From assembly GCA_004173475.1 (NCBI GenBank), contig SEBU01000005.1, positions 430,974-494,973 of the forward strand: a stretch of 64,000 bases of DNA, read 5' to 3'. Of the stretch, positions 37,614 through 46,261 are shown piece after piece. The first letter of the stretch is position 1; every line of letters starts with the position of its first letter. Position numbers and translations under genes: made by a program. Under the pieces are notes generated by a model, which did no database searches, had not been told where the DNA came from, and saw only the letters and a program-made list of their open reading frames with translations. The DNA is from Gammaproteobacteria bacterium (GTDB lineage Bacteria > Pseudomonadota > Gammaproteobacteria > Pseudomonadales > Cellvibrionaceae).

Positions 37614-38528
37614 TTAAAAGGTCACAACTTCTGCCTTAAGAACTCTCACATTTCCGCTATCATCACGTATTTGTTCCACGCTTTTATAGCGACCATTAGC
37701 AGCAATACGTTTTGCCAAAAACTCTCCCTGCCCCAACCCGCACTCAAAAATTAAACATCCGCCAGTGCGTAAATAAGCAGGCGATAGCTCAATTAATTGA
37801 TTAAAAATGGATAATCCAAAGGGGCCTGCGTTGAATGCCTCCTCCGGTTCATGCAGGGAAATTTCCTCTGCCATATACTTTACTTTTGCGGAGGTAATAT
37901 AGGGAGGAGCGCTTAAGATGATATCGACCGCACCCTTCAAACTATCAAAGGGACTAAATAAATCAGCGTTATAAAATGTTGCCCGACCCGATAACTCAAA
38001 ATGCTCTGCGTTAACCTTTGCAGCGGCTATCGCGGGGGCATAGATATCTGATCCTAATACGCGAACGTGTTTGCAATGATGGGCCGCCGCTAAAGCTACA
38101 GTGCCAATCCCTGTGCACAAATCTATTAGTAAAGCATCAGATTGATTTGAATGACTTGCCAAAGTTTGGATAGCTACGTTGGCTAAAAGCTCTGTTTCTT
38201 TTCTTGGAATATACAATCCTTTATTAACAATATATTCCATACCAAGAAAATGTTGGCGCTCGGTAAGGTGCGCCAAAGGAACACCAGCCAGACGTTGTGC
38301 GACAAGTTCATTGAGATATTCAAATTGCTTATCACTTAAAGTTGGTAATTGAAGTTGAGCGGCAACAATCGGCGACACATGGCTATCTGTAGCTAAATGC
38401 CACAATGCGCGTAAGGTATTTTCAGGATTCTCTTCACTTTTATCGGGCAGAATAGTTAAATCTTTTAAGCGATCTAATAAAAGCGCAAAGTTATTTTCGT
38501 GTGCCAAAATCCTGTTCTCCCAATACAC
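37614..38528 (-). CDS. PrmC/HemK-like class I methyltransferase with modified NPPY motif
   Basis: IDLCTGIGTVALAAAHH SAM motif; VDIILSAPPYITSAKVKYMAEEI...EPEEAFNAGPFGL (PrmC-like, N->A at NPPY). Confidence 0.85.
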   Translation of the reverse strand: MYWENRILAHENNFALLLDRLKDLTILPDKSEENPENTLRALWHLATDSHVSPIVAAQLQLPTLSDKQFEYLNELVAQRLAGVPLAHLTERQHFLGMEYIVNKGLYIPRKETELLANVAIQTLASHSNQSDALLIDLCTGIGTVALAAAHHCKHVRVLGSDIYAPAIAAAKVNAEHFELSGRATFYNADLFSPFDSLKGAVDIILSAPPYITSAKVKYMAEEISLHEPEEAFNAGPFGLSIFNQLIELSPAYLRTGGCLIFECGLGQGEFLAKRIAANGRYKSVEQIRDDSGNVRVLKAEVVTF

Positions 38529-38565
38529 ATTATATTAAATTTTATTTGTAAAAATCTGTGTGCTT

Positions 38566-38991
38566 TTATTGTGATGTTAACTGAAGCTGGATTGATTGAT
38601 CTCCTATCAAGAGCGAAGTTTTGGAATAGGTAAGTTTTTCACGAATTTTACCTTCCTGGAAATGTAGTACATCAACACCGCGTCTTGTTTCTAGCTCACC
38701 TTTATATGAGGACTCCAAAGATGGCCATTCTAGCAACCATCGAAACAATGCCTTTTGAGCTTGATCATCCACGAAAATATCTTCTGCAATAAAACGAAAG
38801 TTACCGTGTTTTAGGAACCAGGGAGTCCAGGCGCGCCGTAACGCGGATTTTCCCCTAATGATTTGGCCAGTCCAATTTTCAAAAACAACATCTTCGTGCA
38901 TCAATTCCATCACACCATCTAAATCATGTGCATCCCATGCCTGCAGCCAGGTTTTTATATTTGCTACTATTTCTGGACTGGAAAGATTCAT
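38566..38991 (-). CDS. SnoaL/NTF2-like protein
   Basis: IKTWLQAWDAHDLDGVMELMHEDVVFENWTGQIIRGKSALRRAW. Confidence 0.88.
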   Translation of the reverse strand: MNLSSPEIVANIKTWLQAWDAHDLDGVMELMHEDVVFENWTGQIIRGKSALRRAWTPWFLKHGNFRFIAEDIFVDDQAQKALFRWLLEWPSLESSYKGELETRRGVDVLHFQEGKIREKLTYSKTSLLIGDQSIQLQLTSQ

Positions 38992-44055: not shown

Positions 44056-44316
44056 CTATGACGCACGTGTTTTCGTGCTGATAAATTTAATAAGGCTATT
44101 GATAGAATCAAGGTTGTCTGGCACCAATTCATCACCTTCAACTTTAATACCGAAGCTTTCATCAAGATGTTCAATCAACTCCAGAATTCCCATGGAATCC
44201 AGAATCCCTCCGTCCAAAAAAGAATCTTCGTCTTTCAATGCTGCCTGGTCGTCGGTGAATAAATAATTTTCAAGAATAAAGTGACGTAATTTTTGGCGGG
44301 CTTCTTCAAGATTCAT
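44056..44316 (-). CDS. acyl/peptidyl carrier protein
   Basis: DGGILDSMGILELIEHLDESFGI; 86 aa; abuts the AMP ligase. Confidence 0.92.
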   Translation of the reverse strand: MNLEEARQKLRHFILENYLFTDDQAALKDEDSFLDGGILDSMGILELIEHLDESFGIKVEGDELVPDNLDSINSLIKFISTKTRAS

Positions 44317-44329
44317 TGGGTAGTCCTTA

Positions 44330-46261
44330 TTAACGGCAAAACTGTTTATGTAAAATTTGGGTGGTTAGAATTCCAGTTAACGCCTGGGACTCCGCCGTAT
44401 TTAATGGCTTATCGCCGCGTGCTTTTTTTAATAGCAAATTAACTTTTTTTGCTTCAAATAACCCTACCTGTTTGAGCTGCGCCTCACTCAGGTATTCGCT
44501 AAGCTCACCACCAGATAGCGATTCCTGGTTGGCAGACACATTTGGTGCTCGATAAGGCTGTTTGATTCGCCGGCTTATTTCTGGCGGCAGATAAGTTTGT
44601 GCCATTTTTCGCAGAATATTTTTTTCCTGCATTGCTTTCATTTTTATTTTGGGCGGCAAACGATTCGCGAATTCTATTAAGGTGTGATCAAGAAATGGGA
44701 ACCGGCCTTCAACCGAATGCCTCGCTAACATACGGTCGCCTTGAGAGCTGAGCAGATAGCCAGACATTAAGGTTTTTATTTCGAGATATTGTGCCCTGTG
44801 AAAGCTGTGCCATGAGGTTGCTTCACCTGGAAAGATTGAAGCAATGTGCGTTTCGTAATTAGTGGCTCGCTCACGAAGCTCTGCGTTGAGATCTTCGCTA
44901 AAAAACATTTTGGCTTTACTGGTTGTTTGCCACCGCGGTAAATGCGAATGCCATAACAAGTCAGGTTGATCTAGCGCAAGCCCAAAAAACTTTTTTAAAT
45001 AGACAGCCGCATCGCCTTTAGGTAACTCCATGTAAGGATACAAACGTTTCAATAGCAGGGGACGAAACGCGGAGTCAGGATTTTTTGCCCAGAACTGACG
45101 AACTTTTGCTTCTTTAAAAATATCGTAGCCACCCAGAACTTCATCCGCACCTTCACCGGTGAGCACAACTTTGTAACCCTGGCTGTGTACAAGTTTGGAT
45201 AGAATTCCCATTGGCGCAGCCGCAGTGCGCAAGATGGGAGACTCGGTATGCCAAACCGTATTCACCAATTCATTTGCAACTTGTGCGTAATCAACCTGAA
45301 TACTTGAGTGTTGCGTACCCAAAAAATCAACGAGATAGTGTTGAAAAAAACTTTCATCGAGCGCGCTGTCGGCAAACCCTAATGAGAAAGTGCGCAAACG
45401 CGCGTTAGTCTGGGTATGCATCATGGCAACTAACACGGATGAATCTAGCCCACCCGATAAATACGCGCCTATGGGAACATCTGAACGCAAACGTAACTTT
45501 GTTGCGTTAAGTAAATGCTCGCGCAACTCTTCGACCAAGATAGATTCGGAGCCTTGATCATATTCTTCAGAACTCGTTGGAAATTTTACATCCCAATAAT
45601 TTTTTTCTGTAATCCCCAAGTGGTTAATAACCAACAAACAACCTGGTTTTAGTTGGAAAACATTTTTAAAAATCGTCGCCGGAGGTACGCAAGTCCATCC
45701 CGTAAAAATTGCATCAAGTGATTGCGAATCAATTTCAAGTTTCTTGGGAATGGCAGGTTTTAGTGCTTTTATTTCGGAGGCAAAACTAAAACTAGTTTCA
45801 TCGGAATAATAATAAAGGGGGCAAATGCCTACACGATCGCGAGCTAGAACCAGGGTCTTTTCCCGTTTATCCCAAAGGCCTATTGCAAACTGGCCATTGA
45901 TATAATTAGGAAACTCAAGCCCATATTCGCGGTAGAGATGCAAGATAACTTCGGTATCAGATTGCGAAACAAAAGCATGGCCCTTTGCAATCAGTTGCGC
46001 ACGCAATTCAATAAAATTAAACACTTCACCGTTAAAGGTAATCCAAAGATTACCATCCGGTGTTTGCATGGGTTGTGCGCCGCCGGCAAGATCAATGATG
46101 CTCAATCGGCGATGAGCAAAGCCCAAATGTTCGTCGAAATAAAAACCTTCCGCATCTGGCCCACGATGCTTGATTGCATCGGCCATCGTGCCCAAGAGTT
46201 TTAAAGTTGGTGTTCGCTGCAAAGCGCCTGCGCTAGAAAAAATGCCTGCTATGCCGCACAT
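44330..46261 (-). CDS. glutamine-hydrolysing asparagine synthetase family amidotransferase
   Basis: MCGIAGIFSS N-terminal Cys nucleophile; KHRGPDAEGF; GAYLSGGLDSSVLVAMM; GEGADEVLGGYDIF. Confidence 0.95.
   Translation of the reverse strand: MCGIAGIFSSAGALQRTPTLKLLGTMADAIKHRGPDAEGFYFDEHLGFAHRRLSIIDLAGGAQPMQTPDGNLWITFNGEVFNFIELRAQLIAKGHAFVSQSDTEVILHLYREYGLEFPNYINGQFAIGLWDKREKTLVLARDRVGICPLYYYSDETSFSFASEIKALKPAIPKKLEIDSQSLDAIFTGWTCVPPATIFKNVFQLKPGCLLVINHLGITEKNYWDVKFPTSSEEYDQGSESILVEELREHLLNATKLRLRSDVPIGAYLSGGLDSSVLVAMMHTQTNARLRTFSLGFADSALDESFFQHYLVDFLGTQHSSIQVDYAQVANELVNTVWHTESPILRTAAAPMGILSKLVHSQGYKVVLTGEGADEVLGGYDIFKEAKVRQFWAKNPDSAFRPLLLKRLYPYMELPKGDAAVYLKKFFGLALDQPDLLWHSHLPRWQTTSKAKMFFSEDLNAELRERATNYETHIASIFPGEATSWHSFHRAQYLEIKTLMSGYLLSSQGDRMLARHSVEGRFPFLDHTLIEFANRLPPKIKMKAMQEKNILRKMAQTYLPPEISRRIKQPYRAPNVSANQESLSGGELSEYLSEAQLKQVGLFEAKKVNLLLKKARGDKPLNTAESQALTGILTTQILHKQFCR

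What the first reader, a model, noticed from the sequence alone, without database searches (positions are those of the whole stretch)
37614..46261. Compact nine-gene carrier-protein biosynthetic operon with no obvious core NRPS/PKS
Nine co-directional genes with tight or overlapping junctions (minus-strand order): AsnB-type amidotransferase, carrier protein 1, AMP ligase, NadE-like synthetase, KAS III, carrier protein 2, GNAT, SnoaL-like, PrmC-like methyltransferase. Catalytic motifs appear intact (AsnB Cys2; NadE SGGVDS; KAS III Cys/His/Asn; AMP-ligase A-motifs; DSMG on both carrier proteins). This is the logic of a small acyl-amide pathway: activate an acid onto a carrier, condense it with KAS III, amidate it by ATP-dependent amidotransfer, then acyl-transfer and methylate. 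AMP ligase, carrier protein and AsnB also co-occur in exosortase/EPS loci, but no glycosyltransferase or exosortase was seen here. The product is unknown, so this is my leading candidate for an undescribed system.
Basis: partly seen in the sequence, partly recalled or inferred. Interest (0 to 1): 0.85.

Follow-up and report, generated by a model that had tools for sequence, protein, structure and literature searches.

The report
Nine-gene carrier-protein amide operon
A nine-gene operon in a Cellvibrio-like bacterium probably loads an aspartate-like acid onto a small carrier protein, decorates it, lengthens it and passes it to an unknown amine; its core is widespread in bacteria, but I found no description of its product.

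Summary
Nine minus-strand genes, with gaps of -4 to +39 nt, occur in the same order in a second species of the genus and are under purifying selection. The operon is autonomous: it fills a variable slot between ssb and a MacAB-type exporter that most congeners keep without it.

Its core (AsnB-like amidotransferase, carrier 1, AMP ligase, NadE-like synthetase) is widespread: NadE relatives occur in at least 579 stretches of species-representative genomes, often beside exosortase/EPS genes, and on Sinorhizobium megaplasmids. The KAS III/carrier 2 extension is rarer (10 long loci), and none of those has an EPS marker.

New here: the ligase has nearly the aspartate-binding code of VinN (DYTKR versus DFSKR), and that code is coupled to the PrmC-like methyltransferase (34 of 35 DYTKR loci, 0 of 56 others). 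True NadE and PrmC lie elsewhere in the genome.

Most likely pathway (inferred): an aspartate-like acid is loaded on carrier 1 by its side-chain carboxyl, N-methylated, amidated at the other carboxyl, extended once by KAS III, and handed to an amine by the tandem GNAT. No step is assayed; the product is unknown. New variant of a known kind, interest 0.6.

The parts
44330..46261 (-). AsnB-like glutamine amidotransferase/synthetase (Cys2, SGGLDSS)
   Evidence: TIGR01536 503 bits; XrtA amidotransferase TIGR03108 only 399 of 817 cut-off; Cys2 in 61 of 62 relatives, the other being a gap
44056..44316 (-). carrier protein 1 (ACP1), partner of the ligase
   Evidence: PF00550; Ppant Ser in 60/60 relatives; beside the ligase in most related loci
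42490..44055 (-). AMP-forming ligase with VinN-type amino-acid pocket (D226, Y227, T296, K327, R328)
   Evidence: nearest solved structure VinN 3wvn, E 5e-68; code DYTKR in 29 of 79 ligases
41475..42464 (-). NadE-like NH3-dependent ATP-pyrophosphatase, paralog of NAD synthetase
   Evidence: NF002048 471 bits; separate 542-aa glutamine-dependent NadE elsewhere in the genome
40405..41445 (-). beta-ketoacyl synthase III (C120, H256, N286)
   Evidence: nearest solved structure 4efi; triad in 9/9 relatives
40105..40365 (-). carrier protein 2 (ACP2), partner of the KAS III
   Evidence: PF00550; next to KAS III in other loci
38988..40103 (-). tandem GNAT acyltransferase
   Evidence: Acetyltransf_9/_1; model pLDDT 84, Foldseek matches are tandem GNATs (Eis, N-myristoyltransferase) at TM about 0.5; profile relatives within 8 kb of NadE in 39/99 loci
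38566..38991 (-). SnoaL-like small protein, possible cyclase/isomerase
   Evidence: SnoaL_2 64 bits; among the loci examined found only here and in G003
37614..38528 (-). PrmC/HemK-like methyltransferase (APPY motif), paralog of PrmC
   Evidence: TIGR03534 191.7 bits, below cut-off 199.1; true PrmC at C2:55848, 289.6 bits; coupled to the DYTKR ligase

Best explanation
The operon makes a small modified aminoacyl-ketide on two dedicated carrier proteins and transfers it to an amine. Proposed steps: (1) the ligase activates an amino-dicarboxylic acid, most likely aspartate or a 3-substituted aspartate, through its side-chain carboxyl and loads it on ACP1; (2) the PrmC-like enzyme methylates a nitrogen of the loaded unit, more likely its amino group than an amide; (3) the AsnB-like and/or the NadE-like enzyme adenylates the free carboxyl and converts it to an amide; (4) KAS III condenses the unit with malonyl-ACP2, giving a beta-keto chain that the SnoaL-like protein may cyclise or isomerise; (5) the tandem GNAT transfers the chain from ACP2 to an amine acceptor. 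Shown: the gene set, its conservation, its autonomy, the intact motifs, the VinN-type pocket and its coupling to the methyltransferase. Inferred: every reaction, the substrate, the order and the acceptor.
For: The ligase's best PDB match is VinN, which loads 3-methylaspartate on a stand-alone ACP (PMC11284099). The five VinN contact residues D230/F231/S299/K330/R331 (PMC11253843) read D/Y/T/K/R here and in 28 other ligases; non-D ligases keep the aromatic and the Arg but have Ala at the S299 site. The methyltransferase is present in 28/29 DYTKR loci and 0/50 others, with changes at separate supported places in the ligase tree; the pattern repeats on alphaproteobacterial plasmids, 6/6 versus 0/6 (not a blind set). 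AsnB and NadE stay with both ligase types, so a methyltransferase acting on their amide would not be expected to track the pocket (inference). KAS III recurs in 10 long loci, window and G003 included; relatives L125 and L095 add FabG-like and FabA-like genes, which act on KAS III products. Housekeeping NadE and PrmC exist elsewhere. Purifying selection in all seven genes that could be tested. Loading a small dicarboxylic acid on an ACP followed by one malonyl extension has a worked-out precedent in cispentacin (PMC10698177).
Against: No product, expression or assay data. The pocket-methyltransferase coupling rests on few independent changes and could be co-inheritance. The ligase is only distantly related to VinN, and T296 and Y227 differ from S299 and F231. 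There is no PLP decarboxylase or protecting aminoacyl step as in the VinN pathway. The methyltransferase has APPY (LPPY in five relatives) where PrmC has NPPY, so its substrate or activity may differ. Two amidating enzymes for one free carboxyl is one too many. The GNAT match is at fold level only.
Confidence: 0.45

Rival explanations
1. It is a surface-polysaccharide acyl-modification cassette that has moved away from its glycosyltransferases: the carrier-bound acyl group is put on an amino sugar of an EPS or O-antigen made elsewhere in the genome.
For: Relatives of the core lie beside EPS genes: at least one of nine EPS markers in 21 of 54 long loci without KAS III; XrtA-type deacetylase, tyrosine kinase and export-protein relatives near the core; the S. 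meliloti methyltransferase and GNAT relative lie next to GumC and glycosyltransferase genes; an Azospirillum core lies in a glycosyltransferase locus. The window's genome has an exosortase locus on another contig.
Against: None of 10 KAS III-plus loci carries an EPS marker (Fisher p 0.023); the core also stands away from EPS genes in Shinella, Nitratireductor and Burkholderiales; the XrtA ligase and amidotransferase cut-offs are not met.
Confidence: 0.3
2. The operon makes a freely diffusing small molecule (signal, chelator or antimicrobial) exported by the adjacent MacAB-type pump.
For: Autonomous operon with carrier proteins, KAS III and SnoaL; an MFP-ABC-permease set follows on the same strand.
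Against: The MFP gene is kept in 17 of 21 congeners, nearly all without the operon, at the edge of the variable slot, so the pump is not dedicated to it; there is no regulator or resistance gene in the operon.
Confidence: 0.15
3. The NadE-like and PrmC-like genes are ordinary back-up housekeeping copies in an otherwise unrelated gene block.
For: The NadE-like protein passes the NCBIfam NAD(+) synthase subfamily cut-off and aligns over the main NadE motifs.
Against: This NadE subfamily lies with the ligase and ACP in most loci; housekeeping NadE and PrmC are present elsewhere.
Confidence: 0.05

Closest known systems
VinN/VinL starter loading in vicenistatin (also FlvN, BolO/BolC)
   Same: stand-alone ligase plus stand-alone ACP; D/aromatic/S-or-T/K/R pocket
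   Different: no PLP decarboxylase, protecting aminoacyl step or modular PKS; AsnB, NadE, PrmC-like, KAS III and GNAT instead
Cispentacin AmcH/AmcB/AmcF-AmcG pathway (PMC10698177)
   Same: a ligase loads a small dicarboxylic acid (2-oxoglutarate) on an ACP and one malonyl unit is added
   Different: a KS-CYF heterodimer rather than KAS III; aminotransferase and hydrolytic release; no amidotransferase. ACP1 scores 44 bits against the AmcB cut-off of 80
XrtA/PEP-CTERM EPS-locus ligase and amidotransferase (TIGR03098, TIGR03108)
   Same: same wider families; ACP, ligase and AsnB co-occur in many EPS loci
   Different: both below cut-off; no exosortase or glycosyltransferase near; KAS III and ACP2 added
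PrmC/HemK release-factor methyltransferase
   Same: same wider methyltransferase family
   Different: below the PrmC cut-off, APPY motif, separate PrmC in the genome

Membership tests
VinN-type beta-amino-acid loading pathway | ligase contact residues D230, F231, S299, K330, R331 | tested here: inconclusive
   D/Y/T/K/R: three identical, two conservative changes
VinN-type beta-amino-acid loading pathway | VinO-like decarboxylase, VinM/VinK and a PKS encoded with it | tested here: not met
   none among the nine genes
XrtA/PEP-CTERM EPS locus | ligase and amidotransferase above TIGR03098/TIGR03108 cut-offs | tested here: not met
   394 of 592 and 399 of 817 bits
XrtA/PEP-CTERM EPS locus | EPS genes in the neighbourhood | tested here: not met
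   no marker in the 64 kb window; an exosortase is on another contig
NAD synthetase (NadE) | sequence subfamily cut-off NF002048 | tested here: met
   471 bits against 313
NAD synthetase (NadE) | makes the cell's NAD+ | not testable with these tools
   a canonical 542-aa NadE exists, which makes a second one unnecessary
PrmC | TIGR03534 cut-off and NPPY motif | tested here: not met
   191.7 of 199.1 bits; APPY
KAS III | Cys-His-Asn triad | tested here: met
   C120/H256/N286, 9/9 relatives

The most novel reading that the evidence does not exclude
A previously undescribed, widespread class of carrier-protein pathway in which an aspartate-like unit is loaded, N-methylated and amidated on its carrier by repurposed NadE, AsnB and PrmC paralogs, with one KAS III extension and GNAT transfer in this variant.
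Probability: 0.35. Interest if true: 0.8.

Novelty: new variant of a known kind. Interest (0 to 1): 0.6.

Why it matters
Genes of the core are annotated as NAD synthase, asparagine synthase and acyl-CoA ligase in hundreds of genomes, including the model symbiont Sinorhizobium meliloti, where those names are probably misleading. The coupling of the ligase pocket to the methyltransferase gives a concrete, cheap test of the substrate and of where the methyl group goes.

Tried and rejected
Adjacent MFP-ABC genes as a dedicated exporter: rejected by synteny in congeners. NadE and PrmC-like genes as the cell's only copies: rejected. Literature searches for the gene combination found no described cluster; a search for S. 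meliloti locus tags gave a taurine-promoter and a bacteroid paper whose link to these genes was not established. Searches for a floc or O-antigen precedent gave no matching system that I could identify. Promoter-like and terminator-like sites were no more frequent than in shuffled sequence. Genome searches with the close GNAT family show it is rare: 2 of 146 genomes in the family, 4 of 298 in the order sample, only the window's own in 387 of the class.

Full report
Observation. Nine minus-strand ORFs fill 37614-46261 with junctions of -4 to +39 nt. The named catalytic residues are intact. The Foldseek matches of the GNAT model are tandem GNATs such as Eis and N-myristoyltransferase at TM-scores near 0.5, so only the fold is supported.

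A real unit. Congener G003 holds the same nine genes in the same order at 68-86% identity, and dN/dS is 0.04-0.11 for the seven genes whose dS is not saturated. In the family sample only these two genomes carry the close GNAT. In the genus, ssb and an MFP gene flank a slot that is about 1.3 kb long in G001, G002 and G013 and holds unrelated cargo in others; the operon fills it in two genomes. The exporter genes therefore belong to the site and not to the operon. Names given by sources to close KAS III hits suggest Cellvibrio.

Relatives. In most of the 80 best loci the NadE lies with ACP1 and the ligase, usually with AsnB; the exceptions are mainly short contigs. Among 64 loci of at least 12 kb, 10 carry the KAS III (window and G003 included) and none of these has any of nine EPS markers, against 21 of 54 without KAS III (p 0.023). 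Tandem GNAT relatives, found with an iterated profile, lie within 8 kb of the NadE in 39 of 99 loci; by Pfam most of the distant ones are below cut-off or unmatched, so this membership is profile-level only. Two KAS III-plus relatives, L125 and L095, also carry SDR and small FabA-like genes that cluster together; in L125 Pfam names them FabG-like and FabA-like, with an FMN oxidoreductase next to the KAS III. The core also sits on Sinorhizobium megaplasmids near minCDE, with the methyltransferase and a GNAT relative about 12 kb away next to EPS genes.

Substrate. The ligase's best solved match is VinN. VinN binds 3-methylaspartate through D230, F231, S299, K330 and R331 (PMC11253843; PMC7756342). 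The equivalents here are D226, Y227, T296, K327 and R328. Across 79 ligases, 29 read DYTKR; the others lack the Asp and have Ala at the S299 site, but keep the aromatic and the Arg. I read this as an amino-dicarboxylic acid against a dicarboxylic acid without the amino group; that is inference.

Methyltransferase. It is present in 28 of 29 DYTKR loci and 0 of 50 others (exception L090, which has two ligases). On the ligase tree the label needs 3 changes, at least 2 of them forced by well-supported branches; shuffled labels need about 23. Alphaproteobacterial plasmid loci show 6 of 6 against 0 of 6. Two of these (L167, L171) came from a methyltransferase search, and others were fetched knowing that a methyltransferase lay near, so this set is a repeat of the pattern and not a blind test. 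Because AsnB and NadE occur with both ligase types, the methyl group more likely goes on the amino group than on the amide (inference).

Paralogy. The genome has a 542-aa glutamine-dependent NadE, a PrmC above cut-off and a further relative just below it. The operon copies are additional paralogs, which argues for another substrate.

Precedent. VinN/VinL and BolO/BolC load aspartate-type acids on stand-alone ACPs. In cispentacin biosynthesis AmcH loads 2-oxoglutarate on the ACP AmcB and one malonyl unit is added. The present operon works along these lines but has a different gene set, so it is not filed as a member of either.

Limits. No reaction has been assayed. The acceptor, which enzyme amidates, and the role of the SnoaL-like protein are open. 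The frequent association of the core with EPS genes keeps a glycan acceptor plausible.

Noticed in passing
window 37058-49003; L142-L151: The interval between ssb and the MFP-ABC genes is a variable slot in the genus, about 1.3 kb in some species and holding different cargo in others.
   Followed up: partly
L162, L163, L165 (S. meliloti pSymB): pSymB carries the AsnB-ACP-ligase-NadE core near minCDE, with the PrmC-like methyltransferase and a tandem GNAT relative about 12 kb away beside EPS genes; the name NAD(+) synthase there is probably misleading.
   Followed up: partly
L146, L147: The same slot in two congeners carries long ORFs of about 1100-1450 aa shared between them, not identified.
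   Followed up: no
window 46756-48345: A 529-aa protein between the operon and ssb has no Pfam or NCBIfam match.
   Followed up: no
G000:C1 about 1450900-1463600: Hits of the ligase search fall in open frames of 2166 and 2258 aa, probably NRPS genes elsewhere in the genome.
   Followed up: no
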